This document shows positions 12,893 to 58,658 of a stretch of 64,000 nucleotides of DNA, piece by piece. How positions within the stretch are numbered: the first letter of the stretch is position 1; every line of letters starts with the position of its first letter. Where the stretch lies: the NCBI GenBank assembly GCA_030272155.1, contig CP126193.1:3162001-3226000 (forward strand). Reading direction: 5' to 3'. The notes beneath the pieces are model-generated. The model worked only from the letters and a program-made list of their open reading frames with translations. It searched no databases and was not told the DNA's origin. Both the position numbers and the translations under genes were made by a program. This DNA comes from Tetradesmus obliquus (taxonomy: Eukaryota > Chlorophyta > Chlorophyceae > Sphaeropleales > Scenedesmaceae).

Positions 12893-15800
12893 ATGAAGTC
12901 CCTCCAGTGCCAGCAGAAGGCGCAGGGCCTGCGTGCCCAGGACTCACGGAGCCGTCGGACGGCTGTGCGCGTGCAGGCCAATGGCAGCGCTCCCGAGGTT
13001 CCCCCAGGTAACAAAACAGCATTTACGTGCCTGCCGTGCAGTGCTGGTCGCAGTGCTTGTCGCAGTCGGTGTCCAGCACGACAGAAACCTCCTCCTGGCA
13101 GCAGCAGCAGGCAGCTGCAGCAGCAGCAGAACTCAGCCGGTTGAGCTGTACAGCCGGGGTGACTACTGCTGTAGTTGTTTCAGCACCGTTCCAGTTAACT
13201 TGTACCGTGATCAGCTGGATGCTGGCGCGGCAGCAGTGGCAGCAGCAGCAGTGCTGGTGCGGTGTTTTCGCACTGGCACCACCACACCCAGTGCATCATT
13301 GCTCACAAATGTGTACTGAGGTTCATCAAAAGCAAGACAGCCACAGTGAGCAGTGGAGCAGCTCAGCAGTGTCAGCAGCATGCAGCGTGCTAGCAGACTG
13401 ATCTGATGCCGCTGGACAGCTGGCAGTTGGTCAGACGATCAGGAACAGTTGCACAGTCGCATACATGACAAGCAAAGCGGGCATGTTGGGCCATGCTGCA
13501 TTTTTTAATGTTCGTACGCTGCACCTGCTGCGCGTCTTCAGGCCTCAACAAATGGAGCAGCCACATCACGCAGCCCAAGAGCCAGGGCGCGTCGCAGGCA
13601 ATGCTGTACGCCACAGGTGCGTGGTGCTTGCGCCACTCTCTCAATCTGCCAGTACACGCGCCAGCACGGCAGCCAGCGGGCAAGCAAGGCCAGCTCACCC
13701 AGTGTGCATATCTGCGGGCTTTGCAGCCGTATCTGCCGCATTGCATGTATGGTGATTCTGGCTGAGGCAGGCTCCCCAAAAAGCACGTCTGCTCCACCAA
13801 CAACCTCACCTATGCACACCACAGCAAACGCATACTGTGCGCGTCACTGACATCTCGCTTTGCTGTGTGGCACGCCATACATGCATGCTTGCCGCCTGCA
13901 GGCCTGACTGATGCTGACATGAACAAGCCTCAGGTCGGCAGTGCAAGCCTCACTCAACCACACTGTCTTCAGCAACAGGAAACTGTATACGTCACTTGAC
14001 TCGCGCTGTCTGGCACCGCACGCATGCTTGCCGCAGGCCTGACGGAGGCTGACATGAACAAGCCGCAGGTCGGCATTGCCAGCATGTGGTACGAGGGCAA
14101 CCCCTGCAACATGCACCTGCTCAACCTGGCAGAGGAGGTCAAGCGCGGCGTGGTGAGTGGGAGGGGCAGAGAGGGGATCAAATGCATGCGTTATTGGATC
14201 AAGTGCATGTTTGGGGTAGTTGGGCGTGGAGTGGAGCGGGCAGTGGAAAGCAGCGGGCAGCAATGGCGGACACAGCAGCTGCTGTTATTTGGCGGAGGTG
14301 GCCGAGCGCAGCGTGGCAACAGCTGTTGTTGGGGGCAGGGGCAGCAGAGGGAGATGAGATGAGTGTGCTGTTGCACAAGTGGTGCATATTGCATGCTGAG
14401 GTGATGCTGAAGGTGGCGTGTGTGGCTGTGATGTGCGGAATGGCAGCTACCTATGGTGGTGCTGCAGTCATCAGAGTTTGCACTGCAGGGTGGGCAGTCG
14501 GTGCACGCGAGGGGGGCTTGGCACAGCACCCAAAAGCTGCCTGCAACTAGCCAGCCATGGTTGCAAAACGCGCTTGGTGGCATGCGTCAGCCTGCTGTGG
14601 TGGTGGTGCTGTGAGGTGGCAGCTGTGACTTGCTGGTTGTGCTGTAGTGCTGTGGCTGTGTGTTGCTGGTGCTGCCTGTGCTGGCAAGGATGGCTAGTCT
14701 CGTTCGGCGTATAGGCGAGTCCCACCAAGACACAAAGCCATGCCGACAAGAATTACATCACCACCCATTGTCTGAGCCAACACAGGTCACAACACTGCTC
14801 CTGCCGTTTGAGGCATGCATGCTGTGGGATAGCACATGGATACGGCTGAAACAAAATGACATGGTTGTGGTGTTGACTGAGCTCACCGAGCCTGAAAACC
14901 ACACCAACGGTTTTGCGTTCATCAGCTAGTATCGGAGTTTTGTCTTGAGCCATCAGCAGCCATTCTACTTCTAGCTTCCTGCATGCTGCTGCTGTGATGC
15001 CCGCCACCAATTCATCTCGCCTCACCTGCCTCATCTTCGCCAACATTCGCTCTGTTTCCACCCTCCCTCCGCAGGTTGAGGCAGGCATGGTGGGTTACCG
15101 CTTCAACACCATCGGCGTGAGCGATGGCATCTCCATGGGCACAGACGGCATGAGCTTCTCGCTGCAGAGCAGGTGAGAGGCCAGCTGCTGCTGCTGCGCT
15201 GGCTGCGGTGTAGCGGCTGTGTAGCAGGGAGGAGCAAAATGCTGATCTACAGAAGTGTCAATGTGGCAGCTGACGGTTGTTGGTTTGCACTACAGCAGTG
15301 CGAGGCATGGCACAACTCTTGCTATGAGAAACAGCCACCCAAGTGACAGAACCACACAGCTACCTACTCTGTGCTGGTCTGCCACGAATGCGGCATGTAA
15401 CCAACCGCCCGCTGCACACATGTGCCGCAGGGACCTGATCGCTGACAGCATCGAGACCGTGATGAGTGCGCAGTGGTACGACGCCAACGTGTCGCTGCCC
15501 GGCTGCGACAAGAACATGCCGGGCAGCATCATCGCCATGGCAAGGCTCAACCGGCCCTCCATCATGGTGTACGGCGGCACCATCAAGCCAGGCTACAGCC
15601 AGCTGGACGGCAGCGTGCTGGACATCGTGTCGGCCTTCCAGAGCTTCGGTGAGCGCTGCTGGCTGCCTGCTGTTTGCTGTGTGAGGCTCTGTGTTGCATT
15701 ATGTTAGGGAGGCTGGCAGCGTGCTAGATTTCGTGTCGGCCTTCCAGAGCTCTGGTGCGTGGTTGCTTTGGAACATCGGAGGCTGCTTGCTGTTTGATGT

Positions 15801-18800
15801 TTTGAATCAATGCGGAGGATCTGCATCAGCGGCAGTGTGCTGGGCACCGTGTCGGCCTTCCAGAGCTTCAGTGCGTGCTTGCTTGACTTGTTGGAGATGC
15901 TTTTCTGCAGGGGAACAACTGTGTGCGTACTGCGCTTTCAGGGAAGACAAGCGCCATGCAATAGGCAGGTGTCGCGACGCAAGTGTGGTGCCTCAGCAAA
16001 ACTCAGGAGTGCCGCTTTCGCCTGCGTCGTGCGTCATCATCACTTGTCCTCATCATCACTAAACATATGCTCTGTGTCATTGCTTTCTGCAGGCGCGTAC
16101 GCAGCCGGCCTAGTGACTGAGGAGCAGCGCTTTGACATGGTGCGCCACGCCTGCCCGGGTGCCGGCGCGTGTGGCGGCATGTACACGGCCAACACCATGG
16201 CCAGCAGCATTGAGGCGCTGGGCATGAGCCTGCCCTACAGCAGCAGCATCCCTGCCACCGACCCACTCAAGCTGGACGAGTGCAGGATGGCCGGCAGGTG
16301 GGTGCGGCGAGGTGTTTAGCTGCCTGCGGTGTGGTTTAGCTTTGGTTGCTGCTTTGCCTGAGCAGCTGTGGCGATGCTGGCGGGCTCGGCAGCTACAGCC
16401 TGCACGTCTGCTGATTGTGCTTTGTGCCTACCCAACACAGCAGCGACATACTATGATAGCCAGAGGACCAACCCCATGCATGATGCAATAACAACGCACC
16501 TGACATGTGTAACATGTTATAAAATGTCATGTAACAGGTACATCCTGGAGCTGCTGAAGGCTGACATCAAGCCGCGCGATGTGATGACCTACAAGGCCTT
16601 TGAGAATGCCATGGTCACAGTCATGGCCACAGGAGGATCAACTAACGCCGTCATGCACTACATCGCCATGGCGCGCGCAGCAGGCGTGCCACTGTCGCTG
16701 GACGACTGGCAGCGCGTCAGTGACAAGGTGTGTTAGGCTGTTGGTACAGTTGGTATTCTCTGACTTGTGTGTGCTGGGCGTTCCGCTGTTGCTGGACGAC
16801 TGGCAGCGCGTCAGTGACAAGGTGGGAGCAGGGGCAGGGCGTGTTGCGAAGTGCGGCGCGGATGGTGTGCAAGGTGGCATGCACACTTGCGAATTAGTGT
16901 GTTCAAAGTCAGGCTCTGTCTTAGACACCTTTCCGTCCAGTCAAGCTGTGTCTGCAGCTATGCGCTGTCTCTTGTTTTTCGGCGGCAATTACCTAATGTA
17001 TCGACATCTGCTGTCTGTGCTGGTAGTGATGACTCGAAGCTGCTGCCCATGCCCTCTGCTCACCTCTCACCTGCCCTACCCCCCTGTATCCCGCACAGGT
17101 GCCCTTCCTGTGCGACCTCAAGCCCAGCGGCAAGTATGTGATGTCAGCGGTGACTATGCTGCTGCTGCTGCTGCCCGCATTCCCTGCATCATTCTGCATG
17201 TACCGCACAGGTGCCGTTCCTGTGCGACCTGAAGCCCAGCGGCAAGTATGTGATGGAGGACGTGCACAAGGTGGGAGGCACGCCCGCGCTGCTCAAGTAC
17301 CTCATGGCGCAGGGCTTCATCGACGGCAGCTGCCTCACAGTCACAGGTGCGCTGCCGCGCGGCGATAGGTGTGGCACAGATAGATGCTGCGCCAGACAAA
17401 GAGTGATCTGTGTTTGTGCATGCACAGGGCATCATTGATGGCTCATGCTTCACCGTCACAGGGTGGCGCCGCCCGGCAACAACAGTTGTAGCTGCTGCGC
17501 CACACATACAGATGTGATTTGTATGCACAGGGATTCATTCACGGCGTTGCCTCATTGTGACAGGTGCCACGTTGTGTCTGTGTGTGGGGGGCGGGAGGGA
17601 GGGGAGGGGTAAATGTACACATTCGATCTGCACATTGGTATTTGCGTTGGTCTGTGCTTGCAATAAGCGGGTGCATGCACTAGCTTTACATGTCTTGCAG
17701 TATCGCAGCAGCTGGCAGCACTCGCACACACCTGCCTCTAACACTCACACTCACGCACGCACACCCGCCTCACTGCCGCAGGCAAGACCATGGCTGAGAA
17801 CCTTGCGGGCTGCCCTGACCTGAAGGCTGGCCAGGATGTGGTGCTGCCTGTGGAGGCCCCCATCAAGGCCACGGGCCACCTGCAGATCCTGTACGGCAAC
17901 CTGTGCCCTGAGGGCAGCGTGGCCAAGATCACCGGCAAGGAGGGCCTGCAGTTCAAGGGCCAGGTGAGAGAGAGATCGGAGATAAAAATTGAGGGAAAGG
18001 TCTGAGGTATTGTTGAGAGAGCTGGGAGGTGAACCAAAAGGAGCATGAGCAGCACTGCCTGGTGCTAGTGGTGTGGCAAGAGGGGATTCATGGCAGCATA
18101 CACTGACCAGCCAGGGCATGGTGTCGGAACAGCGTCAGAACGTCCACAACAGCTCTGCTTCCTGGAACTAGATAGCAGTTTTTTGGAACGCCTGCCTTGT
18201 CATTCGCTTCGCGAATCCTGTACGGCTGCCCGCCACGATCATACATCATCCGTGGCCCCGCCTGCTGCTCTGGGCGCTTATTGTCACGTGCTGCTGCGCT
18301 GCAGGCGCTGTGCTATGACTGCGAGGAGGACATGCTGGCTGCACTGGAGCAGGACACTGAGAAGTTCAGGGGCAAGGTGGTCATCATCAGGTGGGATGAC
18401 GCCACCGCATGGCAGCAGCAGCAGCAGCATGTCCTATGGACCATCACCAGCAGCACTTCGCCTTGTTTCTTCATTCGGATCAGAATCACTTTGCCGTCTC
18501 TACCATCAGTAAGGCTGTTGTGACTCATCCGCTGCTGCTGCTGCTGCTGCCGCCAGGTACGAGGGCCCCAAGGGCGGCCCCGGCATGCCTGAGATGCTGA
18601 CCCCCACCAGCGCCATCATGGGCGCGGGCCTGGGCAAGGAGTGCGCGCTCATCACGGACGGCCGCTTCAGCGGCGGCAGCCACGGCTTTGTGATCGGCCA
18701 CGTCACGCCAGAGGCGCAGGTCGGCGGGCCCATCGCGCTGGTGCAGGTGAGACAGGCTGGGAGCTTGGGTTCGAGGCATGGGGCGGGGTGGCAGCTGGCT

Positions 18801-19570
18801 GTGTGTTGTGGTTGGCAGCACGTCGACGGGCCCAATGCGCTGGTGCAGGTGATGCGCTGGTGCAGGTGAGGCGCTGGGTGGCGGCTGCAGCTGCTACGGC
18901 CTTGGAATGCCACTTGTGGTGAAGCTGTAAGGAGTCCAGCTGGGGCTGGGGCTGGGCAACAGGGTGCTAGGGGAGTGCGTATGCTGTCGCATGCAGCACG
19001 CTGGTACATGTTGGCTGTGGCTGCCCAGGCGCTGCTGCAGATGATACATTGCTGCAGCTGGGGAGGGTGGCAGCTGGCAGCTGGCTGTGGCAATGGGGCA
19101 TACAGGTACAGCTTGGGGAGTAGAAGGGTTCTGCAACGCCGGCATCGGGAGCATCTTTTGTGAAAGTTTGACGACCACAGTTAAGCCGGTGTGAATTGAG
19201 CAACTCTGACTGCTCTGCTGCCATCCTCTGTTTACACTCTCTTCGCAGGACGGCGACGTCATTGCGATCGATGCGGCGAAGCGCGTGATGGACTTTGACA
19301 AATGACAACTGCAAACGTCATCTGACAAGAACACTCCACTGCTGCGGTGCCTTCCTTTGTTTGCACTCCTTACTCTCTTTGCAGGACGGCGACGTCATCG
19401 CCATCGATGCGGAGAAGCGCGTGATGGACATTGAGGGTGTGAGTGATGCTGACCTGGCGGCGCGCCGCGCTGCGTGGACGGCGCCTCCCCTCAAAGCCAC
19501 CAGCGGCACGCTGTACAAGTACATCAAGAACGTGCTGAGTGCTTCAGAGGGCTGCGTTACTGACGCGTGA
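12893..19570 (+). CDS. ilvD: Dihydroxyacid dehydratase, chloroplast
   Basis: Twelve exons: 12893-13007, 13542-13616, 14037-14152, 15075-15172, 15431-15648, 16093-16297, 16538-16727, 17211-17346, 17782-17963, 18305-18390, 18557-18746 and 19385-19570. All are in phase, giving 598 residues, close to plant DHAD (about 608). The enzyme converts dihydroxy acids to 2-oxo acids in valine, isoleucine and pantothenate synthesis in the plastid. Cysteines for the iron-sulfur cluster lie in GNPCNMH (87), PGCDKNMPG (159) and CPGAGACGG (228-234). The [16 protein letters not shown] block near the C-terminus is the active-site serine region. The first 38 residues are basic and fit a transit peptide. Nearly every intron contains decayed copies of neighbouring exon edges (listed separately), which could give aberrant transcripts. 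Confidence 0.96.
13880..13951 (+). repeat. Ghost of DHAD exon 3 start with acceptor
   Basis: Acceptor-like TTGCCGCCTGCAG followed by a close copy of the first 50 bases of exon 3 (real copy at 14037), including the flank GCATGCTTGCCGC. It loses similarity and frame after GTCGGCAGTGCAAGC. It has no matching donor. Confidence 0.85.
15711..15757 (+). repeat. Ghost 1 of DHAD exon 5 end with donor
   Basis: Copy of the last 40 bases of exon 5 (GGCAGCGTGCTAGATTTCG onward) and its donor, now TCTGGTGCGTGG. The intron sequence after it also resembles the start of the real intron, so the duplicated unit was about 115 bases. Confidence 0.85.
15826..15877 (+). repeat. Ghost 2 of DHAD exon 5 end
   Basis: Second copy (AGCGGCAGTGTGCTGGGCAC onward to GAGCTTCAGTGCGTG), about 115 bases beyond ghost 1 and more diverged. 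Confidence 0.85.
16774..16827 (+). repeat. Ghost of DHAD exon 7 end with donor
   Basis: Copy of the [10 protein letters not shown]-coding end and donor (GACAAG|GTGGGA), starting about 47 bases after the real donor at 16728. The frame is preserved in the copied segment. Confidence 0.88.
17093..17152 (+). repeat. Ghost of DHAD exon 8 start with acceptor
   Basis: CGCACAG plus a near-identical copy of [15 protein letters not shown], then diverges. The real exon begins at 17211. This is the best preserved ghost, so acceptor choice between the two may be imperfect. Confidence 0.9.
17424..17570 (+). repeat. Two ghosts of DHAD exon 8 end
   Basis: Copies at about 17424-17463 (CAGGGCATCATTGATGGCTC onward) and 17529-17570 (CAGGGATTCATTCACGGCG onward) repeat the [12 protein letters not shown]-coding end; the second is heavily mutated. 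Each ends in a donor-like sequence. Confidence 0.8.
18815..18872 (+). repeat. Ghosts of DHAD exon 11 end
   Basis: GGGCCCAATGCGCTGGTGC and a second partial GATGCGCTGGTGCAGGTGAG repeat the GGPIALVQ-coding end and its donor, 90-125 bases after the real one at 18746. Confidence 0.8.
19200..19305 (+). repeat. Ghost of DHAD exon 12 start, possible alternative last exon
   Basis: Acceptor CTTCGCAG at 19241-19248 followed by a copy of the start of exon 12. In the DHAD frame it reads [18 protein letters not shown] and then stops at 19303-19305. If used it would replace the last 61 residues by 18. The upstream 45 bases of intron are copied too. Confidence 0.85.
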
Positions 19571-21380: not shown

Positions 21381-24367
21381 ATGCCTCAATGGGTGGCAGT
21401 GGTTTGCAAAACGAAATTTCATGGAATCCTTCTGCTTGCACTGCTGGTCCTCAGCGGCCGACTTGCCAGCAGCAGCAGCAGCAGCAGCAGCAGTGCTGCT
21501 TCTGCAACCAGCAGCAGCGGCTTGTCAGATGTGCTCAGCAGAGGCCTTCTGGCTGATGCTGCTGCAAGCATTACACAGGCAACTGCTACCGCCTCCGGAT
21601 CAGCTACTAACAACAGCAGCCGCAGCAGCAGCAGCAGCAGCGGCGGCGGCCATAAGCTGGACAGTCACGGCCACGATCCTGCTGACTACCTTACTTGGCA
21701 CTGGAGGGACTGGCACAGCGGCATTGCCCTGATACTGGCTGCACTCAACTTCTTTGCGGCAGCATCCACGGGCCAGGGCGGCACTGCTGTGCTCATCCCC
21801 ATCTTCACTGCACTGCTGCACCTGCGTGAGTGGCCAGCTTGGGCGTGCAATACAGCATGGCAGCAAGTGGGCAGCTTTATGCTGCTTGTGCCTATCTTCA
21901 CAGCGCTGCTGCACCTGCGTGAGTGCCAGCAGAATGTACCATAGCATGTCTTTCTGCGCACCATGCAGACAGTCATGCTGTGGCTGGCCAGCTGGGGCGT
22001 GCAAGTATGTCACGGCAGCAAGTGGGCAGCCTGATACTGCTCGTGCCATTACGGATGGGCCACAGCAATGGTGCATCATGATCACATCATAACATACTAC
22101 CTGTGCTTACGGCAGAGCACAATGTGCTGCTGTGGTGGTCGCACAAGCAGCTTGCTTTGAATCTGATGTCTTTAACCAGGGGAGCTGCAGCTGACAACAA
22201 CCATGTTACTGTGCTGTCCTGTTGTCTGCACTGCAGCCGTCAACCAAGCTGTGGCTTGCGCCACATTTGTCATCTTCCTTGGATCCATCCCTAGGTGAGA
22301 ACTGCAGGCAGCATGCAACAGTGTGATGGCTGCTGTGCCAGCCAGCAGTGTATATACTTATCTATAAGCCGAAGTGAGCAGAAGCATGCAGCCATGCCGC
22401 AGCAACCGATGTAGCGCACTTAGCACAGCAGCTGCTGGAGGAGTTTTCACACATGTCACTTTGAGCATAGCACCTGAGGCGGAACAGCGTCTTTGAACAA
22501 CACAATGCGGCACATTCTGCAGCATACCGCATGATGTCATGCCAGCAGGCTGGGTTCAAGCTCTCTGTGCAACATTTGCTGCACTGGCTGCAGCCTGTAC
22601 CATGCTGCGGTGATGGGCCACCCCTACAACCCCGGCACCACACTCATCGACTACTCCACCATGGCCATCCTCACACCCGCAATGCTGGTCGGCATCAAAG
22701 CAGGTGAATGCAATGATGGAGCCAAACACAAATGCAGCAGGGATTGCAGGTTGGCTGCTGCAGTGAAGAAGACACATGGTACCGTGCCCTCACATCAGCA
22801 AGCCATGCATCTGCGCTACACAGCTGGCATTCGCTGTACCCAGTTGACTCACGCTGCACGTGTTACGGTTAATGCTGCTGCTGCTGCTGCTGCTGCTGCT
22901 GTGTGTGCAGGTGTGACTCTGAACAAGATGTCGCCGGAGTGGTTTGTGTCCTTCCTGCTGATTGTGGCCTACTCAGCCTCAACAGGCAAGCAGCTGCATG
23001 GCATGCTCAAGCTGAGGGTGCAGGAGGCACACATGGCTCGCCTGAAGAGGAGGTGCGGCAACACGTTATCCAAAGTAACACCAGTTGGACAGATTAAGCA
23101 TGAGCAGGATAGTGAGCAGGATGCAGCCGAGTAACAGGCAGAAGGCAGAAGGAGGTGCGGCAAGCACACTTGGCGCAGCACACAGCCGCCGTGCAGCTCA
23201 CACCCAGCAGCAGCAGCAGCAAGCAGCTAGCTGCACCTCTCAGTGACATGATGCAGCGTCTGGCACATGCAGTGGACCTGGTTTTAGGCACAGCAGTGCC
23301 TGCTCATTCCATGTGGTGCTGATGTGTGCCACCAACATGTTGCGTGATGCAGGGTTGAGCAGGAGGTGGCTGAGCTGAAAGGGCCGATCGAGCAGGATGC
23401 AGCTGCAGCACACAGCTACACAAACAGCTTTACAGCAGCAGCAGCGCCAAGCAGTGCAGCATTAGACATAACAAGCAGCCTGGCATGTGTGGAGCTGGCA
23501 GCAGCAGCGCCAACGGAGCAGGAGCTGCAGCGGCGGCAGACGCTGTGTGACTTGCAGGACGACATCGAGGAGGTAAGAAGGGTTCACCAGGCACATTTGA
23601 CTTAATCAGGGGCTATATAACACCGCATCACCCACACAGCCCTCTCAGACATGCACTCAAAGCCTGCGCTATGCAGCACAAGCCCGTCCCTGCCCAACAC
23701 GCCTACACACTGCAATGCAACCCGACACCCACTCTACCGCTGCCGCCGCCCTTTGCGCTGCCCTGCAGATGGTGCTGCTGTCTCGCGAGATGCTCAAGAC
23801 AGAGGCCCTCAGCCTGCCGCCCCACGCGCTGCAATGCGCCACAGACACCACCATCAGGTCAGCCCTAGAGCACCACGATGCAGACAGCATAGCAGGAGCT
23901 AGCCCACGAGGCGTCAGCACCCGCGGCGCATCGCCAATCTATGGCAGTAACAACGGCCTGCACATCATCTGCCCGCATGGCAACATGCAGCAGATGCCAT
24001 CACCCTGGGCAGCAGCAGCAGCAGGTGGCGGTGGAGTGCAGTTCGGAGTGCAAGGAGGAAGCCCCATGGGCCGATCTCCGCGTGTGAGCATCTCAGAGCT
24101 GACAGATGCCGAGCTGGTGCAGTTGGGTCAGGCGCTGACAAGGCCCTCAACCGGCTTGTCCAGGCATCCCTCGCTGCTGCTTGGCTGCAGCATGCCGTTC
24201 AGCCCGCAGCATCAGGATGTGGCGGCAGGCTCTGCTGCGCAGCAGCAGCCAGCGCTGCAGCGCCAGCTGAGCTGTGCAGTGGATAGGGCCCAGGAGCTGC
24301 AGGGGTGCAGCCAGGCGGTGGGAGGTGCTGGGCTGCCGGCAGGCGCATCAGCTGCAGGTTTTGATCT

Positions 24368-24403
<36 letters not shown>

Positions 24404-27203: not shown

Positions 27204-27420
27204 TGGCCAGACATGACACCTAGGTGACGTGGTGACACGATACACCTGGGTTAATCTGGCAAGATGCGACTGATGGCCTTTGGTGGCCAGACATGACACC
27301 GAGGTGTTGTCGTGACACGATACACCTCGGTTGACCTGGCCAGACGCATAGCTGGCCCTTACTGGCCAGACATGACATCTAGGTGATGTGGTGAGACACA
27401 CACCTAGGTTGATCTTCAGA
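27204..27420. repeat. 80-bp tandem repeat, three copies
   Basis: Units start with GGCCAGACATGACA at 27204, 27284 and 27363. Copies are diverged, the third truncated. Each contains GTGACACGATACACCT or a derivative. No coding frame is shared. Confidence 0.85.
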
Positions 27421-29269: not shown

Positions 29270-30910
29270 TCACACAAGGATGGGATGCACCTCATGGAAG
29301 TCTGTCACAGCCTGGAACGCAGCCCCAACAGCAATGACAGCCGCATCGTCTCCCGGCAGTGCCACAATGCTGTTCACCTCTGGCTGCAGCCACAACTGCT
29401 GCCCGCCGCCAGAGCCGCTGCTGCTGTCTGACGAGGCGTTGTTTGAGTCGTCCGCTGAGCAACCGCCCCGCTGCTGCTGCTGCAGCTGCTGCTGCAGTTG
29501 CTGCTGTAGCTCTGCGCCCCGCTGGTGCCGCACATTCCCGCCAAGCTGCTGCTGCGCCCGCAGCGCATCAGCTGCTGCTGCCGCCGCATCGCTGCAGGCC
29601 GCTGCAGCCGCACTATTGCCGGCCGCCGGGCTGACAGTTTCATCGTCATCTGCTGAAGCCAGTGTAAAGCTCACAGGAAGCAAAGCCTCAGGCATATCAA
29701 GCAGCGTAGCAAGGCCATCAATGCCCACTTTGCTCTTGGTGGGCTTCAGAAGCACATCGATGCCGTTGGCTGCAAAGTAGTGTCGCGTCTGTGCTGCCAG
29801 CACTGAGCGCAGCCGCTGCGCCTTGAGGTATGCTGATGCGGGGGCGACCTGGCCTAGCTGGATCAGCGGGTACTGCAGAGCAAGCGGCAAAACACAGGAG
29901 TGCACATGATCAGAGCGTGAGGTGCTTGGCCCAGCTGGACAAGCGGGCGCTGTAGCAGGGTAGACATCAAGACAACAGCTTAGAGACGTGCTTGGGCCAG
30001 TATTGCTACATCGCAACGTGCCTGTGTAGTGCAGGGATTGCGTGCTTCTGTGTAGTTGGTGAGTGCACTGGTGACGGGCTCCAGGACAGTAGCTAATAAT
30101 ACTTCAAAAACCATCTGTGCTCATCATGTTATGCATCGAGTTTGTGACGCTGTGAAAAGATGGCAAGCCCGTTCACCCAGTGGCCGATATACCCCTCCAG
30201 CCACAGCCCCTCAAGGCAGTTGCTGCAATCCCTCACCCAATCATCCTCACAATGTGATAAATCAAGCCAATGATGCGATCAATTCAAACCACTCACCCAG
30301 TGGCTGTCCTGGTCTCTGTACCCCTCCAGCCACAGCCCCTCCAGATACTTGGAGCAGCCCTGAGCTCAACAATCGCAGCCCTTCCCAACCAGGCCACATG
30401 GCAGCACGCAATCACCCACCCAGTGGCTGTCACTGCCTGTTTTTCAATTATCTCAGCACAGCAGAAAGCAGCCACAAGAGCAGCACGCATCCACTCACCC
30501 AGTGGCTGTCCTGGTCGATGTATCCCTCCAGCCACAGCCCCTCAAGGCTCACAGCCACCTCAGCCTGCAAGATGACACTGAGCACATCCTGCACCAGCTG
30601 GTTGTTGCCCGGCGGCTGCAGCGGCCCCTTCACGCAGCGCGGCTGCTGCCGCATCAGTGCTGCAACCAGGTTGCTGCTGGTGCCGCGCAGGTAGCCGATG
30701 CACAGGGAAGATAATGCCGGGAGCTGCTGCAGGGTTGGTGGCAGCAGCAGGCCGCGCTGCCGGTACTGCTGCTGCTGCTGCTGCAGGAGGATTGAGGGTG
30801 GGGTTTGCTGCAGGGTTTGCTGGTGCTGGGTGTAGTTGAAGGAGGCTGCTGCAGCTGCAGGCTGGCGGTGTAGCCGCAGCTGTGATGCAGCATGTGAGGC
30901 GTTGCTGGCG

Positions 30911-38978: not shown

Positions 38979-41900
38979 GCAACATTGCGTCAGCATGCAA
39001 GCGCTTGCTGTCCACCAGTGCACTGCAAACCCAGCCACACACCTGCAAGCCGAATGCAGGTGCAGCTAGCATGCACAGGAGGGAGCTTTGTGAAGGGTCT
39101 GTGATGGTCTGACAAGCTGCCACTGTCAAGCAAGACATCACAGAGCCGTGCTCATCTAGCAAGTACAACACATATGCTGTCCATGCCCAGCCCAGCCTTG
39201 AATGCAACGCCAGGCATGAGCTGCATCGCAGCAGCGCCTGTGATCACAGCAAGCGCTGCACTCACGCAAGCCGTACGCAAGCAGTACACATGATCAAGTC
39301 GGCATCACAGAAACACAGCAGCGCGCCACCGCACCCACCTGTGCCGACCTCCAGCTCCACGTGCTCCGGTGCCGCCAGGTACACGCTGTCCACCAGGTCC
39401 TTGCCAAAGGTGACTGCCTCGCGCTGCTCAGTGCCCTTGGCGGGGTTCTTGGGGTCCTTGGACTTGTCCAGGTAGGTCAGGCCCTTCAGGCCGGTCACCT
39501 GAGAGGGCGCGCGGTGACACAACAAATGTCACCTGAGAGGGCGCGCGGTGACACAACAAATGTCACCTGAGAGGGCGCGCGGTGACACAACAAATGTCAC
39601 CTGAGAGGGCGCGCGGTGACACAACAAATGTCACCTGAGAGGGCGCGCGGTGACACAACAAGTGTATTAATATACAGATCTGTTCGTTGCAGGGTAGCAG
39701 AGGGTCCTGCTGGGGTCCTTGCTCTTGTCCAGGTAGGTCAGGCCCTTCAGGCCAGTCACCTGAGGGCGCGCGGTAACACAACAATACAGTTTGATGTGTG
39801 ACAGGCAAGCACATGTGCATGCAGTCGAGCGCACGCGGCACGTGCTGGAGCTGTGAGGCGCCATCGCCTGGCTGCAAACAAGCTGCTGCAACAGCCGCTG
39901 CCACATCAACATGCGTGCCTCAACCTTGCCCACGCGCGGCACCTCACTGTTGTGCACCGTTGTGCAACTCAGCCTCGTCCAGATTCTACACACCTTGTGC
40001 ACAACCAACACAAAAACAAACAGCACCCTAGCCTTGCGTGCCGGGCCCGCACCCTGGCCTTGTCCACGTGAAGCACCTGACCCTACACCGACTTCAACCC
40101 ACAGGCAAAACATCATGCAGCGCTACACCCCTGTCTGCTGCACAGCGCCGCTACCAACTTAAACCCACAGGCAAAACATCATGCAGCGCACCTTGGCCTT
40201 GTCCACGTGCAGCACCTCGAAGTAGGTGTGCAGCGCGGTGGTGAACTCGAAGGGCTTATCGCCCGTGTTCATCACGCGGAAGTCGGTGCGCAGCTGCTCG
40301 CCGTGCAGCGTGACGGTGTACACCTGAGGCAGGCGAAACACATGAGGCAGTGCAGTATCAGCTTGTTAGCATACACGGCACGTAAAGGAAGCTCAGAGCA
40401 ACAGGGCTGCCAACCTGCAGTGCTGTGCAGTTTTGGGCCGCTGACATAAATTACAGCAGCGCAACACAGCATGACGGTGCTCCTGTGGCTCAGTCCCTTT
40501 CTTGCTCCATGACACCGATTGTGAGCCTTGGCCTTATGCGGCCACACCTGGTGCTACAGCGATTGTGAGCCTTGGCCTTATGCGGCCACACCTGGTGCTA
40601 CAGCGACTGCTGACACCCACCCCTGATCCGGTCACAAGAACCAACTGCAGCATCGCCCACTGTGCTCACTGCCTTGAATTTGTGTGGCCACATCGGGTGC
40701 TGCAATGGCTGCTGACATCATCCAACGGCCTGCAGTCCACCCAAACAGCATCCCCCGCTGTGCTCACCGCCTTGAACTTGTGCGGCCACATCTTGAGTGT
40801 GTAGTCGCTCTCGCTCAGCACCAGCTCCACCTCGGGGTCGCGCTCGTCAGGCTGGAAGTCGGCAGACGTGCTGGCCACCTGGAACAGTAACAACAGAACG
40901 GCGGTGCCACATGTGCTGTGCATGTTGGTTCCTTGTCGCATGTGATGTGCTTGCAGGTAGTGCTGGCAGCCGGACAGAGATGGTCAGGCTGGAAGTTGGT
41001 CGACGTGCTGGCCACCTGGCAATTGCCACACGCGTGTGCACCGGGCGGTATAACAACATAGATGTAGTTTTCAGAACACAAAATGCTTCCTGTAGTGCTC
41101 TGAAAAACAGGCAAACAGCCTAGCGTGTTTTTGGCGCTGCGATTGCTGCTACGTTTAAGCCGTTCTCGGGGTTGAGCATACAGCAGCTGATGTGGCAGAA
41201 CCCTGCTGCTGAATGAGAACACAATGACAATCCTGCTGCTGCTGCCGCCGCTGCCGAAGCTGCTGCTGCTGCTGCCGCGCACCTCCCAGTCCAGGTTGCG
41301 TGCGAAGCCATGCTGCTGCATGGCGCCTGGGCCAAACTGAGGGAAGCAGTGCGGCACACCTGATAAGCAGAGCAGAGCACAAAACACACAGCAGGGTATG
41401 AATGATCTTCACAGCGCTCCATGATGTTTGAGGTAGATACACGGCTTCTGTGTTGGCTCCAAACAAGAGAGCATCCACACATCTGCAACACTGCCGCGCA
41501 AAATGTTACTACACCACACCAACCACAGCGGCGTCTGCACACGTGGTGTCTTGTAGTTCAAAAGGAGAGCCATCCCAACGCAAATGCTTGCAGGCATGTG
41601 CCCAGGTGTGCCTCATTCCATGCTATGCTTGCCACGGCTGTTGCAGCGCCTCGCCTCACCTCCGCTGATGGGCTTGCTCTTGTCGAACACGGCATCAGGG
41701 CGCACGTACAGCACCTCGTCACCGCTGGCCTGCTTCCAGCTGCACACAGCGCCACCAAACAGGTACACCTGCAGCGCTATGCAGGATTGGTGGCAGCAGC
41801 AGCAGCAGCAGCAGCAGCAATGATTGGGGCAAGTGGGGACAGGGTTGTCTTGTGTAACGTTTGTGAAGGTATGTGCTGGTCATCAGCGCCAGAATGGTTG

Positions 41901-43208: not shown

Positions 43209-44866
43209 ATGCAGACCGCCACACAGACACGCTCCTGCACAGGTAGTTATAGCTAATTACTGTTGAATATCATTTCTAGTGGCTTGCGACACGACGGCGA
43301 AGTTGTATCTGGGCGTTCAATTGCGAGCTGCAACTCTGTGGCGCATCGTGAAACAGCCGCAGCAAAGCACTAGCTGGTGGATCCTCTGTTGTTTTTGCAT
43401 CCTTATAGATATATATCATTGCCGTGGTGTTGACAGCGCAGCAGCTGGCCTGCACACTTCAGCGGGGACAGAGCAGCACCTGGCAGCACCAGTTAGCCAC
43501 TGGTCAGGCCAGGCCAGGCACCCCTTGCAGGACGCCCATTGCAGCAAGCAGCGAACTTCCACCACACATATTTGCAACCTTCAACTTCTCAACCCCGAAG
43601 TCACAGCAAAGCAGTAGTAGAGTAGGTGGTTGACACCTGCAGTGCTGTTCCTGTGCTTCTGTGGTGCCATTCCCTGCAGGCCTGCGGCCAGCATTTGGCG
43701 TGGTCGCACCGCGCGTGCAGCGCATGGCGGCGCAGCCCCGCCACATCTGCGACGCCGCCAAGATCCAGTTCATCCGTGGCGTGGATGAGCCCACAGTGCC
43801 AGATGTGACGCTGAAGCGGGCTCGCAGCGGCACCAGCGGCCAGGCGCTGTTTGTGTTTGACAACCCCTCCATCTTCCAGGCATCCAGCGAGCTGGGAGAC
43901 ATCACAGGTGGGTGGGCTGGCTGGCTGGCGTTGATAATGCAATGCAGAATGGCTGCCGTCAGTTGCGGTGTGTTGGCCTGCAAGCCTGCAGCCCCAGTCG
44001 TAGGCTGGCTATGGCACTGCACTGTAGGTTGACAGTCATGCAGCTGGCAGCCTCAAGCCAGCACGCCTCGATGGCTGCAGCAGCTGTCTAGTCAGCAACC
44101 TCGGCGGCAGCGCTGCCGAGCATTTGCCATGCTGTGCTGCAGTACCCTTGCCCACGCTGCCTCCTGTCCTTTTCATGCCACCAGCAGCTGCATGCAGCGC
44201 CACACGCCGCAGCTCACCGCACTGCTTCACTACTTTTGCTGCCGCTGCTGCCACCGCCACTTCCGCTATCTCCAGGTCTGTTCATGACTGACGACGTGGG
44301 CACGCTATCAACAAACACATCATTCGACCTCACTGCCGCTACTGCTGTGGTTGCTGCTGCTGCCATCATCTTGATTTAGGCCTGTTCATGATTGACGACG
44401 AGGGCACGCTGTCCACCACGGACGTGAAGGCCAAGTTCATCAACGGCAAGCCGCAGGCCATAGAGGCCAAGTACGCGATGCGCAGCCAGTTCGAGTGGGA
44501 CCGCTTCATCCGCTTCATGGACAGGTGCGGCGGGCGCTTGCTTGGGGGCTGCTGCATGGATTACTGCCTGTGCTGCAGGCGGTGCGCATGCTTGCAGGCA
44601 CACGGGGAGTCTGGCTGGCTCACAACAAAAGGGGAAGCATAGCGCATGCCAGTTAGGGTGTGTGTGGCAGGCCTGGGTGGATGTTGCCTGTGTATCACAG
44701 GCTTTACCGGGGTGCGCAGCAAACCTGGGCCCTTGAGACATGCAGGTGGCAGTAGTGGCCGGTCCCAGCGACTCAATATGATGGTGCCTGCTGCCTGCTG
44801 TCTGCTGCCTGCAGGTATGCTGAGTCCAACGGCATGGGCTTTGAGAAGACCAGCCCACAGAAGTAA
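43209..44866 (+). CDS. psb28: Photosystem II assembly protein Psb28, chloroplast
   Basis: Four exons (43209-43242, 43680-43907, 44380-44524, 44815-44866) join in frame to 152 residues. Psb28 is a thylakoid-associated factor bound to photosystem II assembly and repair intermediates near CP47. The mature protein follows the family closely: [82 protein letters not shown]. The 34-base first exon supplies [12 protein letters not shown] and joins [17 protein letters not shown] to make a basic, acid-free transit peptide. The bacterial protein is about 110 residues, which matches the mature part. Intron 2 contains a decayed copy of the start of exon 3. Confidence 0.95.
44270..44330 (+). repeat. Ghost of Psb28 exon 3 start with acceptor
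   Basis: CTCCAG|GTCTGTTCATGACTGACG onward copies the first 35-40 bases of exon 3 (real acceptor at 44379). The copy reads [14 protein letters not shown] before diverging, so the frame survives briefly. Confidence 0.88.
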
Positions 44867-47921: not shown

Positions 47922-47959
<38 letters not shown>

Positions 47960-49820
47960 GCCTGCCGCTGCGCTGCTGCCGCCGCCGCCTGGCGTTGCAA
48001 CTGCTGCTGCTGTGCTGCTGCTGCTGCCGCTGCTGCAGTTGCTGCGCTGCTGCTGCCGCCTCCGCTGCTGCCGCCTAGGCTAGGGAAGTCCTGGGCGCTG
48101 CTGGTGTCCGGCACTGGGGTGCTGGAGCTGCAGGCAGCAACAAAAAACACGCTCGAACCACAACAAAGACAGGTGTACAGCATCAACAGCGGAAATGGAT
48201 AGCACCAGCAGGCACAACAGCCATTGGAGCAAGGCCTGGCAAACTGCAGCAGCGCAACCTCAGTGCACACAGCCCTTGCATGCGCATCTGCAAACTTCAC
48301 ACATTCACTATATGGTGATCCCAACATGCTGCCCCGAGCTGCACATTATTAAGGCGTGTGGTGCTGTCACTGATGCTGTTGCTGCTGTCGCTGCTGCGCT
48401 CACCGTGCTGCTGTGTGTGCCAGGTGTGCCTTGTGGTGCGGCTCCACCACGATGACGCTGCTCTGCCAGCGCGTCTGGTTGGCGCCTGCCACTGCTGCTT
48501 CAACGCTGTCCTCATCCATGTATGTCACCTGCGGTTGAAGGGAGCAGGCAGGTTCAGGCGGGTACAGGCACATCAGAGGTCAGGCACAGTGCGTGAAGGT
48601 GCATTTTCATTGGCACCTGGTGCTACGTCAACTGGATGCGTGTGCAGCAAGCTACAAGGCTCGGCACGCAGCAGATGACAAGAGCAAAGCGCAAAAGCGC
48701 TTGCTTCTTCCTAGCGCTGGTGTGCAATGTGTGTCTGAGCAGAAGGCCGTGGCTGCAGTGGCGCAACAGGCTGCTGCATGCAGTGCCCTGCCCCACCTGG
48801 CCAAAGTACTGGTGGTACACGTTTGGACATGACGGCATCTCACTGCAGAAGAGTGACAGGCTGATACATCTGCATGCCTTGCATCCACGCACCTGGCCAA
48901 AGTACTGGTGGTACAGGTCTGTGTCTGTCTTGCACTGGTAGATCTCCCCAAACTGGCTGAAAAAGTCGTACAGCATCTCCACATCAACCTCCTCTGACAG
49001 ATTCTGCAGCCACAGCACAGCATGGCACAGCACAGCACAGCAGGTCGACTATGTTGCTGTCTTTGAGGATGTGTGATGGGTGTGCAACACAGACACACCT
49101 GCTGCAAGCTGTGCTGAACACAGCAGCTGAGGATGCTGCTGTCAAAATGCATGATGCACCGGCATAACGCAGGGAAGCATGCATTGCTGCTGCTCACAGT
49201 AAGCACAGCTGATGACATGTGCGTGCAATGGCCATGAACAAGATTAGGCGGCAGCAGCAGCAGCAGCAGCAGCAGCGCTTGCTGTCTCACCTTGATGATG
49301 ATTTGGAACTTCAGGCTGAAGGGGCCAAACACTCTGTCCTTGTCCAGCGCAGAGTACATCAGCTTGGCGGGATGCCCATTGAACACGACAGCAAAGCGAT
49401 ACTTGGTGAGCGCCTTCTTGGCTGCAGGCGCAGCAGCAGTAGCAGTAGCAGCAGCAGCAGTAGCAGAAGCAATCAGGGTTGAGAAATGATCTGCTGCGAG
49501 GCTTTGCTCAATCGCACGGCATGCTGGGGGATGGGTCAGAAAACAGGGGCTGTGCAGCAGGGGCCGTGACACACACAACATACTACAGCAGGTGTGTTGC
49601 ATAGCATGTGGCAGCTGCAGGTGTGCTGCCGGCCGGCAGTCTCCGCACCTTCGTCATGGGTGTTGTAGTTGAGATAAGCTGACCCGATGTGCGAGTTGGG
49701 GTTGTTGTGATCGATCGGCAGCACAACCTGCAAACACACAAACAGGATGTAAGAAAGGCTGGAGACCCTGCTTGGTTTCAGAATCGAGGCAGCAACTGCA
49801 GCTGCAATGCACAACTGCGC

Positions 49821-49851
<31 letters not shown>

Positions 49852-54240: not shown

Positions 54241-54271
<31 letters not shown>

Positions 54272-57200
54272 TGCATCAAAGCCTTCAGCAGGGCAGCGCT
54301 ATCAGCGCCGCTCTTAAGCGGCAGCAGCAGCACATGACAGCAGCAGCAGCAGCAGCGACAGGAGCAGCCTATTACGCGTGTCGCCACACATATGAGGCTC
54401 ATGCTGGCAGCCTCCCCTTGTGTGGCATACACTTGCACACCAACCTGCACCCACGACGTCAATGGTATGTGCTGTGTACAAATGTACCGTATTCCTGTAA
54501 ACTGGTGCTCGCGTTCCTGCGCTTGTCTCCCGCCTGCAGGAGGAGCAGGTGATGAAGCAGGTAGCCATCCCCAAGGCTGTGTACACTGGCAGCTGCAACC
54601 AGCTCTTCGACTTCCTGGCGGAGCAGCTGGCAGACTTCATCAAGGAGCAGGAGGCGCGCCACAAGGTGATGACGGCCGGCAGCAGCAGCAGCAGGGGTGC
54701 AGGAGCAGGGGTGCAGCAGCAGCGGGAGCGCAGCAGGGATGGTTGATGCGCCAGGCAATGCTGGGATCTGCAGCTCTGGGGAGGAGCAGCAGTGCGAACT
54801 GCAAGCGTGGAAGTGCCGCAGCACCTGCCAGTGTTGTGCGCGCGCAGTCCCTTATGGCAGCTGCCCTTGTGTAAAGGTAGCAGTGCATGTTCACCCAATC
54901 ACCAACCCCAGTAACACGATGCGCTGCTGTACCACACTTGAACATAGCCTGCCCTTTGCATATGCTGCTGCTGGCTGCTGGTGCATCCTGCAGGATGCCG
55001 CCGCCAGCGCTGCGCTGCCTGTGGTGGGCTTCTGCTTCAGCTTTGCTGTGGAGCAGCAGGCGCTGAACAGCGGCAAGCTCATGGGCTGGACCAAGGGCTT
55101 TGACGTGGATGGGGTGGTGGGCAAGGACGTGGTGGCACTGCTGTCAGGTGCGGTGCTGGCTGGTTTTTGTGTTGCGTGGCGCTGCGGCGTTCTGCAGCTA
55201 GCGTCCTTGCTATTGCTGGGGCCGTAGCAGCAGCACTGGTAGCAGCAGCTTGCATTGGTTTGTCAGGAATAGGTGGGCACAAGAAAACTCGTGCAGCGGG
55301 CTCAAGGTGTAGTGCTGGTACAGCATAGCGGCAGCACACGCGGCCTGCAAGCAGCTGCTGCAGCAGAGGCTAGCCTGCTTGGTGCTTGCTTGACCCTGAT
55401 CAGCTTGCAGCATGCAGGGCTGGTGGGCCTGCAGCGTTGGCAGCAGCAGCCAGCCGCCTGCAGGTTGGGCCTTGTGCTGTAGCAGCAGTTGCGCTTGCTG
55501 CCTGTTGGTTGATACAAAATTTACAGAGCCAGGTGGCCATCAAGGGTGCGTGCAGGCGATCGCACTTGCTCCCTGCTGATCTGTGCACATGTACGCATGT
55601 GCGCATCCCTGCTGCTGCTGCGCAGAGGCGCTGGCGCGTGCCGGCAAGCCTTGCCGCGTGCTGGCGCTGATCAACGACAGCGTGGGCGTGCTAACCGCCA
55701 GCTGCTACATGGACACAGCAACAGAGATGGGCGTCATCCTGGGCACAGGCACCAACGCCTGCATCGTGGATAAGGTACGGCGCGGCGCGGACCAGGCGTC
55801 GCATGTATGTTAGAATGGGTGCGGTCTGTCACACTAATTGCTGATTATACAACAGCAGATGGCTCTTGCAGTCATGCTTTGCGTGATCTGTGCATGCAGC
55901 GAAGCTCGCTCGTGCTTCTTTGAATATTGAGGCCACACCAGCTGTGCTGGTTGAATGATGTTGAACCAAATGCTTGCCTCAGCTGACCCAATCACCACAC
56001 ACCGAACCAAACCGGACGTCCACAGTTACCCATGTGCGGCACTACCTGCACTATCGCAATGTGATGCCATAGCATATTATACATACAAGTGGTAGTGTCT
56101 GTACGTTGGGATAGCTCACCGTGTGCACACCATGCGCCGCAGGTGTCCAAGATGCCCAAGTGGAAGGTGAAGGGCGTGGAGCATGACACGCGCACCGCCA
56201 TCAACACGGAGTGGGGCTGCTACGGCAGCGTGCTGCTGCCGCGCGTGAAGGAGGACCTGGAGCTGGACGCAGCCAGCGGGCCGCAGCAGGGTGAGGCGCA
56301 GTGTACATGACATGAGCGCTTGCTGCTGCTGTGGCAGCTTCTAGCTGTGCTATTAGTGCTTCACTGCCACATGGATGGGCCAGGCGAGGCGTGATAGAGG
56401 GGCATCATCGGCGTGTTCACGCTACAATGCGGCTATGGCACGACAGACACCTGTCTGGTAGAGGCGGGGCCGCCCATGGTCTCGTTTGTGGTGTGAGTGG
56501 CATGATGGCTGTGTTTGTGCATCAGCAGGCCACACTGGCGTCAACGTCAAACGCGCAGCAGGAGATGGCCACCAGGACATGTTCAGCGCCACGCAACAAC
56601 CTGTGGCTGCTGCGTCAAGCTGTCGATGGCTGGTGTTGTGCATCTGCACTGCAACACCTGAACTCGGCAGCACGCCTTGATGCCAACATTCTGCGCTCTC
56701 AGCTGTGCACACTTTGCTGACTTGCGGTCACTTTGGCTGTCTTTTTGCCTGTATAAGCACGATCATTTTACAGTGATTTGCATGTGACGCATCTTGAAGC
56801 AATGCTAAACCAGTCTGGCCCCCTGTGTCGCTGCCGCGCAGGCAAGATGCTGATCGAGAAGCTGATGTCGGGCCTGTACATGGGCGACTGTGCGCGCCGG
56901 CTGCTGCTCAGCTTTGCGCAGCGCGCCAGCCTGTTTGGCGACGTCATCCCTGAGGCGCTCACCAAGAAGGACAGCTTCAGCACGGCAGGTGGGGGGAATG
57001 TCAGCAGCAGCAGTTGTGTCATCCCTGAAGCACTCACCAAAATGGACAGCTTCAGCACCGTAGGTGGGGGGGCAGCACCGCAGGTGGGGGGAGAGGGGCG
57101 GGGGGGGGGGGGGGGGGGGGATGCTGATGCTTGGCTTTGGCTGGCACTTGTGATTTTGTTGGTTGACTAGCGGTTGTGTCATCCCTGAAGCGCTCACCAA

Positions 57201-58658
57201 AAGGGGCAGCTTCAGCACTGCAGGTGCGGCACAGAGCAGGGCCTGGTGGACTGGCTTGGGGGCTTGGCTGCAGCGGCTTGCGGGGCTGCAGTGTGATACT
57301 GGCTGTGCAGGGTTCTAGAGGCTTGCAGTGACCATCACCACTTGCTTACAACTTATAGACAAGCAAGCACTGACGTTGCAGCTGTGTGCGTACGTGCTGG
57401 CTGCAGACCTGTGTGAGATTGAGAGTGACGTCACGCCGCACCGCAGCCACGTGGCGCGCGTGTTGCAGCAGACCATGGGCGTGTACCCCGACACAGTCAA
57501 CCTGGAGACGCGCTACCTGGTGAGACCCACAGCAGTGGCTTGTCAGCCTGGCCGCCCATCAAAGCGACAGCATACATACCAGTTTTTGTCGGTGGTGGAG
57601 CAGCAGCAGGGCAGGCAGCAGCCTCGCTGGTGTCAGCCACACTGCCTGTAGCAGCAGGCCCGTCAGTCTGGTGGTCAACCAAAGCGACAGCATACGGACA
57701 TGTTTCATCACAGTGTGCAGGTGCAGCAGCAGCAGGGCAGGCAGCAGCAAAAGTGTCAGCCTGCCTGCCTGTAGGTGACAGCTGCAACGTCCAAGCTGCG
57801 GTGCAAAATGCAGCCCGCATGCAAGTGTCAGGAAAAGGTCCCTGCTGCGTGTTGGGAGCAGCGTACAGCTCTAGCATAGCATTGACCTGTGCCACCAGAC
57901 ATCTACCGGCGCTGCAACAACCTGCACTGCACCAGCACTTATTACACACGCACTGATCCTCGCACCAGCACGCGCCCGTCACCGATGCTGCTGCTGTTGC
58001 CGGCTGCGCCTGCAGATCCAGTCCATCGTGCGCCTGGTGGTGCGCCGCAGCGCGCGCATGGCTGCGGTGCTGCTGGTGGCGGTGCTGCGGCTGCAGGGCT
58101 GGCAGGAGGCGCCGCGACGGCTGGTGGTGGCTGTGGACGGCGGGGTGTTCCTCAAGTACCACAACTGGCGCGTGTTCTTAGACACATACCTGCGGGAGGC
58201 CTTCGGTGAGCTGACTGCTGCTACAGCTTGTAGAAAGCCAAGGTGCAGTGGCGCAGCGATGCCAGTTACGTGTCTCAGGTTTGTTACGGTGTTTTCTGCA
58301 GCAACATGGCGCACAAGTTGAGGCGCAGGGGTTGGCTGGTGGTTGGGGTTGCAACAAGAGCAGCGGGCAACAGCGCATACCGCGTAGTGTTGCTGAACGC
58401 CTGCCCGTAGCTGCTATGCAGCTGCTAGCACTGCTCTGGCACAAGCCAGCAAGCAGCGCCCAACACCATTTGTTCTGTACTTGGAGTGCTTCTTTCCTTA
58501 CCTCCATAGTGCTGATGTCAACTCCCTTCTTACCGTCTCACATCCTGCTGCCAGGCTCACGCGCCAAGGAGCTGACTCGGCTGATCCAGTTCAAGCCGAC
58601 AGCAGACGGCTCCAGCTTCGGCGCAGCTGTGCTGGCAGCAGCAGCAGCCAGCAGCTAG
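53256..58658 (+). CDS. HXK: Hexokinase, N-terminally membrane-anchored (plant type B)
   Basis: Twelve exons: 53256-53399, 53616-53681, 53800-53876, 54147-54237, 54540-54665, 54994-55147, 55626-55774, 56143-56290, 56842-56988, 57407-57519, 58016-58205 and 58555-58658. In phase, 502 residues, the usual size. It phosphorylates glucose and other hexoses with ATP. Motifs: DIGGTNFRV (106-114, phosphate 1), GFCFSFAVEQQAL and WTKGFDVDG (sugar binding), LINDSVG with catalytic D237, GVILGTGTNA (phosphate 2), NTEWGCYG, and VVAVDGGVFLKY (adenosine site). A hydrophobic helix at 11-29 (VGLAGGALAAAVAAAYYGY) replaces a plastid leader, as in plant hexokinases anchored to the mitochondrial outer membrane. The intron after exon 9 has two ghost copies of that exon's end. 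The intron after exon 10 contains an internal tandem repeat of about 110 bases. Confidence 0.95.
54238..54270 (+). repeat. (CAG)n just inside hexokinase intron 4
   Basis: About ten AGC/CAG triplets begin directly after the donor GTGAGC at 54238, on the donor rather than acceptor side. Confidence 0.85.
57005..57235 (+). repeat. Two ghosts of hexokinase exon 9 end with donors
   Basis: The VIPEALTKKDSFSTA-coding end with donor GCAG|GTGGGG (56989) is copied at about 57015-57070 (donor GTAG|GTGGGG) and 57173-57230 (GCAG|GTGCGG). Both copies keep the frame. Confidence 0.92.
57100..57120 (+). repeat. Homopolymer run of 21 G
   Basis: Pure G tract between the two exon-9 ghosts. Length may be an assembly estimate. 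Could form a G-quadruplex-type structure. Confidence 0.85.
57535..57765 (+). repeat. Intronic tandem repeat, two diverged copies of about 110 bp
   Basis: CAAAGCGACAGCATAC occurs at about 57557 and 57678, and GGGCAGGCAGCAG at about 57610 and 57736, both inside hexokinase intron 10. Confidence 0.75.

What the first reader, a model, noticed from the sequence alone, without database searches (positions are those of the whole stretch)
13000..58000. The same junction-spanning duplication recurs in at least eight unrelated genes of this window
Ghost exon edges occur in DHAD, TauE-like, fasciclin-amidase, G6P epimerase, Psb28, RRM/U-box and hexokinase genes (plus both exon ends in some), on both strands. 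They always lie beside the parent and in the same orientation, and essentially always include the exon-intron boundary. Pure random tandem duplication should also give copies internal to introns or to exons only; exon-internal ones would be selected against, but the boundary bias still looks strong. This could be a genome-wide mode of intron growth and a reservoir for alternative splicing. Possible drivers (inference): template slippage at transcribed R-loops, or repair of breaks at splice-junction sequences, since AG|GT is itself a short direct-repeat-like motif.
Basis: partly seen in the sequence, partly recalled or inferred. Interest (0 to 1): 0.9.

Follow-up and report, generated by a model that had tools for sequence, protein, structure and literature searches.

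The report
Tandem copies of exon edges
In this alga-like genome, stretches of about 120 DNA letters that straddle the border between a gene's coding part and its intron are often repeated next door, so introns carry decoy copies of exon edges; why the decoys still look protein-coding is unsolved.

Summary
In 304 kb (window plus six 40-kb blocks), 241 direct repeat pairs start within 600 bp of each other, against 6 inverted. Of 1030 predicted exon ends, 147 have a copy of their terminal 60 bp in the flanking 500 bp (score >=40; nulls 0). In the window I confirm seven genes, not eight. Most units measure about 98-145 bp (51 of 65 <=170 bp; median 123-125), about 50 bp exon plus 70 bp intron; the rest cluster at 200-280. 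About half of the intron halves are detectably duplicated, so these are tandem duplications across junctions. Junctions are enriched over random units (54/81 vs 0.32, strict exons), less in young pairs, and hardly when whole arrays are shifted. No AG|GT bias. Surprise: copy-parent differences fall on third codon positions more than a neutral copy allows (0.62 vs 0.43-0.46). One block has none (0/148). One similar case is published in potato (PMC4974935). Exons are predicted; there is no RNA evidence.

The parts
14037..14083 (+). DHAD exon start (parent)
13902..13948 (+). ghost of that exon start, offset 135
   Evidence: 47 bp aligned, 89%
15608..15647 (+). DHAD exon end (parent)
   Evidence: Pfam ILVD_EDD_N
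15715..15751 (+). ghost 1 of 15608-15647, offset 106
   Evidence: 92%
15830..15869 (+). ghost 2 of 15608-15647, offset 222
   Evidence: 93%
16683..16727 (+). DHAD exon end (parent)
16777..16821 (+). ghost, offset 94
   Evidence: 93%
17211..17255 (+). DHAD exon start (parent)
17099..17143 (+). ghost, offset 112, two differences, both 3rd codon position
   Evidence: 96%
17307..17564 (+). DHAD exon end and two older ghost units, about 115-bp period
   Evidence: reading; BLAST pair (69%); not among the hits
18716..18746 (+). DHAD exon end (parent)
   Evidence: Pfam ILV_EDD_C
18818..18848 (+). ghost, offset 102
   Evidence: 87%
19385..19434 (+). DHAD last exon start (parent)
19249..19298 (+). ghost, offset 136
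   Evidence: 92%
   Evidence: no Pfam hit
21883..21918 (+). ghost, offset 93
   Evidence: 83%
30499..30546 (-). exon end near the amidase exon (parent)
   Evidence: this exon has no Pfam hit, Amidase is at 31593-31769
30297..30344 (-). ghost, offset 202
   Evidence: 92%
30181..30217 (-). second copy, offset 331; alignment stops 13 bp short of the junction
   Evidence: 92%
39443..39498 (-). exon start (parent), epimerase region
   Evidence: exon without Pfam hit
39702..39759 (-). ghost, offset 261, beyond a 34-bp minisatellite
   Evidence: 93%
40194..40217 (-). epimerase exon end (parent)
   Evidence: Aldose_epim Pfam
40055..40078 (-). ghost, offset 139
   Evidence: 24 bp, 96%
40846..40878 (-). 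exon start (parent), epimerase region
   Evidence: exon without Pfam hit
40983..41015 (-). ghost, offset 137
   Evidence: 91%
44382..44416 (+). Psb28 exon start (parent); the two exons match profile 1-47 and 50-96, so the ghost is not needed for the domain
44278..44312 (+). ghost, offset 104
   Evidence: 89%
48893..48921 (-). RRM exon end (parent)
48797..48825 (-). ghost, offset 96
   Evidence: 93%
56943..56988 (+). hexokinase exon end (parent)
57018..57058 (+). ghost 1, offset 75
   Evidence: 90%
57178..57223 (+). ghost 2, offset 235
   Evidence: 89%

Best explanation
Genes in this genome undergo recurrent local tandem duplication of units of a preferred size, about 100-145 bp. Many units cross a splice junction and contain about 50 bp of exon and 70 bp of intron. 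Such a duplication is tolerated because the outer splice site still gives the normal mRNA (inferred; no RNA seen), so the intron gains one unit. Intron halves then diverge fast, largely by indels; exon halves stay recognisable because the parent is under selection, so old units are seen mainly as exon edges. Shown: direct orientation, unit size, junction inclusion, homologous intron halves in about half of the pairs. Inferred: the mutational origin (break fill-in or slippage), harmlessness, net intron growth, and persistence as the main cause of the boundary excess. Not explained by this alone: the coding-like pattern of differences.
For: 241 direct vs 6 inverted pairs within 600 bp. 225 copies of exon edges at score >=40 vs 0 in two nulls. 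In 65 nearest copies of parents >=90 bp, 51 have units <=170 bp with median 123 (donor side) and 125 (acceptor side); exon and intron parts are negatively correlated (-0.62), so the sum is what is fixed (only 320 bp of flank searched). Of pairs with offset <=170 bp, 25 of 52 (donor) and 21 of 48 (acceptor) have intron halves scoring above the 95% null. Contiguous arrays read and found by TRF: an L11-like gene (about 119-bp units, C8a 30027-30718), a ClpP-like gene (118 bp, 98% match, C1a 19320-19859), an SNF2-like gene (131 bp, C4a 31366-31962); gene names recalled from the translations, not searched. Median flanking intron 393 vs 288. Junction-free repeats exist too. A single potato gene shows the same architecture with mRNA support (PMC4974935, abstract and passages).
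Against: Of 94 pairs with >=93% exon identity, 37 show no intron homology (score <12), 18 are ambiguous and 39 homologous; in the SNF2-like array two ghosts share 59/59 exon bases but, by eye, little of their intron parts. Simple TD plus neutral decay does not predict that. Third-position excess. TRF arrays of period >=80 (match 69-98%) are, by whole array, 15 junction to 0 intron-only (model) or 12:3 (strict), against 6.4:5.4 and 4.0:7.8 expected for one random unit, which hints at a formation bias; taking only the first unit of each the counts are 14:1 and 6:9. Intergenic loci are few: 5 of 91 vs about 19.5 expected. Mean flanking intron is not longer with a copy (383 vs 407). One block of ordinary genes has 0 of 148. 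Exons come from a self-trained gene finder without RNA.
Confidence: 0.6

Rival explanations
1. Junction-directed duplication: a mechanism tied to splice sites or transcription (AG|GT repeat, R-loops) makes the copies at boundaries.
For: Junction share 54/81 vs 0.32 (strict) or 71/81 vs 0.52 (model); whole TRF arrays of period >=80 nearly all cross a junction; few intergenic loci.
Against: No AG|GT excess at junctions with copies. In the young subset 11/19 and 16/19; a two-fold visibility advantage alone would give about 0.48 and 0.68 (my arithmetic). The array-span null shows little excess, and one-interval counts with strict exons equal expectation (28/82 vs 0.33).
Confidence: 0.15
2. Shielded ghosts: arrays contract or convert often, and contraction fuses the parent to the ghost edge, so haplotypes with damaged ghosts throw lethal mutants; ghosts are thereby kept coding-like without being translated.
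For: Third-position fraction 0.618 (95% CI 0.53-0.70, 43 loci) in unlabelled ghosts vs 0.43-0.46 in two sets of 200 simulations, none reaching it. Ghost-ghost differences show it too: 66/102/283 in all 116 pairs, 21/17/48 where both are unlabelled. Unlabelled ghosts within 150 bp have fewer position 1+2 changes than farther ones (32/902 vs 62/959, Fisher 0.004, permutation 0.012) at equal third-position change (72/443 vs 80/477).
Against: Stops occur at about the neutral rate in unlabelled ghosts (3 vs 2.1-3.1 expected); 14 of 60 carry a frameshift. No mosaic signal of exchange (1 incompatible site pair in 14 rows, some rows being the two ends of one array; low power). Needs high array instability and large Ne, both unknown.
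Confidence: 0.15
3. Unequal exchange between diverged alleles: copies were already different coding alleles when they were placed side by side.
For: Would explain a synonymous excess together with a neutral stop rate and diverged intron halves.
Against: Would need silent allelic divergence of the order of 10% (my estimate). A DHAD exon and the DHAD region match no second gene copy in the assembly. Alleles could not be examined here.
Confidence: 0.12
4. Ghosts are real alternative exons that are translated.
For: Coding-like divergence; many keep good splice sites; the gene finder labels 130 of 225 as mostly exon; over all 126 nearest copies stops are fewer than neutral (3 vs 7.8-11), though that set includes copies called exon, which cannot hold stops in frame.
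Against: Offsets mod 3 are even (37/49/40) and only 16 of 126 units read through in frame; copies in DHAD, Psb28 and hexokinase would repeat a stretch inside a Pfam domain (inference); frameshifts and stops occur.
Confidence: 0.08

Closest known systems
[quoted passage not shown]
   Same: A tandem duplication crosses an intron-exon boundary and copies splice signals into a tandem arrangement.
   Different: There one event made a new, spliced intron; here many genes, copies inside existing introns, arrays of up to about six units, a size ruler near 123 bp; no RNA evidence here.
Rogers-type AGGT duplication model of intron gain (as described in PMC4974935)
   Same: Direct tandem duplication within a gene.
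   Different: The unit spans an existing junction; no AG|GT excess.
Small tandem duplications from fill-in at staggered breaks (PMC8355091, abstract and introduction)
   Same: Short direct tandem duplications.
   Different: The paper speaks of short (<100 bp) insertions in the human genome; here 98-145 bp with arrays; mechanism untested.
Introners (PMC9860276, abstract start and one passage)
   Same: Many introns of one genome changed by inserted sequence.
   Different: The copies are local and gene-specific; distant repeat pairs within a block are rare.

Membership tests
Tandem duplication across an exon-intron boundary (potato-like) | direct copies beside the parent and crossing the junction | tested here: met
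   intron half detectable in about half of the pairs
Tandem duplication across an exon-intron boundary (potato-like) | a new spliced intron arises | not testable with these tools
   no RNA data
Rogers AGGT model | AG|GT at the duplicated exon edge | tested here: not met
   no enrichment
Introner elements | similar sequence in introns of many genes | tested here: not met
   within blocks distant pairs are rare; the DHAD region searched genome-wide gave one dispersed intron stretch, 14636-14778, outside the ghosts, plus short matches. Blocks were not compared with each other.
Minisatellite-like tandem arrays | head-to-tail units found by TRF | tested here: met
   24 arrays of period 40-300, 18 with period >=80; most single ghosts are not called by TRF
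Mutually exclusive exon duplication | copy spans the whole parent exon | tested here: not met
   1 of 65 (parents >=90 bp)

The most novel reading that the evidence does not exclude
Untranslated exon-edge copies are kept under protein-level purifying selection because unstable tandem arrays feed them back into the gene: a visible case of second-order selection on non-coding decoys, with a roughly 123-bp duplication ruler.
Probability: 0.13. Interest if true: 0.85.

Novelty: new variant of a known kind. Interest (0 to 1): 0.6.

Why it matters
It would give intron lengthening a countable mutational source and fill a genome with near-authentic cryptic splice sites about 120 bp from real ones. The narrow unit size points to a specific repair or replication step, and the coding-like divergence of copies that should be neutral is a puzzle that resequencing could solve.

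Tried and rejected
Exon-only copying: rejected as the general rule because about half of the intron halves are detectably homologous. Homeolog or paralog source: no second DHAD copy. Recursive splicing through AG|GT: no motif excess. In-frame read-through: offsets even mod 3. Gene conversion mosaics: no signal. A first gene-finder training drifted to micro-exons and was discarded; the second is used throughout. A first count of typed pairs (65 pairs: 59/55/173 by codon position, 4 stops) looked to me compatible with neutral ghosts until modelled.

Less favourable or biased tests: the unit-level test used only the interval from first to second copy and gives 53/82 (model, expected 0.52, p 0.026) and 28/82 (strict, expected 0.33); I judged it wrong for acceptor-side copies and replaced it. 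The age-stratified contrasts are biased by selecting on exon identity. The near/far contrast was thought of before the call but not written down first, and is one of several splits tried (offset, ghost number, distance from junction).

Rows dropped: blocks over 160 bp or 200 bp; offsets outside 60-170 bp (91 of 124 loci kept); hits ending more than 2 bp from the junction (187 of 225 kept); copies labelled as exon (unlabelled: 60 copies, 43 nearest); exons under 30 bp or 90 bp (strict sets). The 1030 ends include gene starts and stops; 974 have GT or AG.

Correction: my notes misplace the lipase-like array; it lies at C1a 38073-38495 (L005:8073-8495). Their L11 coordinates are reverse-strand; forward C8a 30027-30718.

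Full report
What was examined. The window lies in a 104.66-Mb, 17-contig genome, alga-like by its Psb28 gene and composition (inference; species not identified). No annotation or RNA is at hand. I used the window and six 40-kb blocks from contigs 1 (two), 2, 4, 8 and 12, 304 kb in all, with a self-trained gene finder seeded on DHAD exons. Exon calls are therefore predictions; some ghosts are called exons, so the placement tests were run with all predicted exons ('model') and with exons >=90 bp only ('strict').

Observation. Local direct repeats are in massive excess: 241 pairs within 600 bp on the same strand, 6 inverted (score >=36). A directed search of the last or first 60 bp of 1030 exon ends against 20-500 bp of flanking sequence gave 249 hits at score >=34 against 2 and 2 in reverse-complement and random-place nulls, and 225 at >=40, where both nulls are empty, on 147 ends: 112 donor side and 113 acceptor side, 187 reaching within 2 bp of the junction. 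About 181 of these are distinct copy pairs. In the window they lie in seven genes from 13.9 to 57.2 kb, with Pfam support for DHAD, amidase, aldose epimerase, Psb28, RRM and hexokinase. Ends with a copy: window 20/220, then blocks 30/128, 12/128, 33/150, 27/124, 25/132 and 0/148.

Anatomy. With parents >=90 bp and 320 bp of flank, 65 nearest copies were measured. 51 have a unit <=170 bp: median 123 (donor) and 125 (acceptor), 5-95% about 98-145, intron part mean 69, exon part mean 53, correlation -0.62. The other 14 lie at 200-289 bp, about two units. Only 1 copy spans its whole parent exon. TRF finds 24 arrays of period 40-300: 18 with period >=80 and six of 42-49 bp, none of the six at a junction. 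Reading one search shows contiguous arrays of exon edge plus intron in L11-like, ClpP-like and SNF2-like genes (names recalled from translations). For pairs with offset <=170 bp, 25 of 52 donor-side and 21 of 48 acceptor-side intron halves score above the 95% null. So the units are tandem duplications, many with strongly diverged intron halves.

Boundary bias. For 91 de-redundant loci with offset 60-170 bp, the junction share among junction plus intron loci is 54/81 (strict; random unit 0.32) or 71/81 (model; 0.52); in pairs >=93% identical it is 11/19 (p 0.019) or 16/19 (p 0.004). Shifting whole pairs (110 loci) gives 84 junction vs 47.2 expected (model) and 65 vs 34.6 (strict). Shifting whole TRF arrays gives 15 vs 13.0 and 12 vs 9.4. 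So an enrichment is real in what is visible; dense exon-intron alternation already produces a third to a half of the junction share, and longer visibility of exon-bearing units can explain a further part. A formation bias is possible but not shown. Junctions with copies do not end in AG or start with GT significantly more than others. Flanking introns with a copy have a larger median (393 vs 288) but not a larger mean (383 vs 407).

The anomaly. Nearest copies differ from parents at codon positions 94/96/290 in 1911 codons (126 loci) and, where the copy is not called exon, 33/32/105 in 603 codons (43 loci). Third-position fraction is 0.604 and 0.618 (bootstrap 0.55-0.66 and 0.53-0.70); a neutral copy with a constrained parent gives 0.43-0.47, with none of 200 simulations in any of the settings reaching the observed value. 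Copy-copy differences show the same (66/102/283; both unlabelled 21/17/48; pairs within an array are not independent). Yet stops in unlabelled copies are at the neutral level (3 vs 2.1-3.1) and 14 of 60 have a frameshift. Near copies are more conserved at positions 1+2 than far ones at equal third-position change. Either diverged coding alleles were brought together, or copies are shielded by feedback into the gene, or some are used; no result here decides.

Literature. Library searches (I saw the listings) listed no report that I recognised as genome-wide junction-spanning duplication in a green alga; the library is partial. The closest is a single potato gene (abstract and passages). For PMC3488318, PMC7730772 and PMC9860276 I saw listing entries and passages; for PMC8355091 abstract and introduction.

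Verdict.

Noticed in passing
L022-L025 (C1:6.00-6.04 Mb): No exon-edge copies at 0 of 148 exon ends although genes look ordinary (Pfam DAGAT, WD40, pseudouridine synthase) and intron lengths are usual; four local repeat loci remain. Regional difference unexplained.
   Followed up: partly
window 14636-14778: Part of a DHAD intron is 89-90% identical to two places on contig 9: a dispersed element.
   Followed up: no
window 39494-39665: Near-perfect 34-bp x5 array starting at an exon edge; a second copy of the edge with part of the repeat lies at 39711-39784.
   Followed up: partly
window 27200-27412: Intergenic 80-bp tandem array, 2.7 copies.
   Followed up: no
window and blocks: A separate class of 42-49-bp tandem arrays, six in 304 kb, none at a predicted junction.
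   Followed up: no
L005:8073-8495, minus strand: Three ghosts of one exon start carry a GTGAGT donor where the parent has GCGAGT, and each has its own acceptor tract (read; array).
   Followed up: partly
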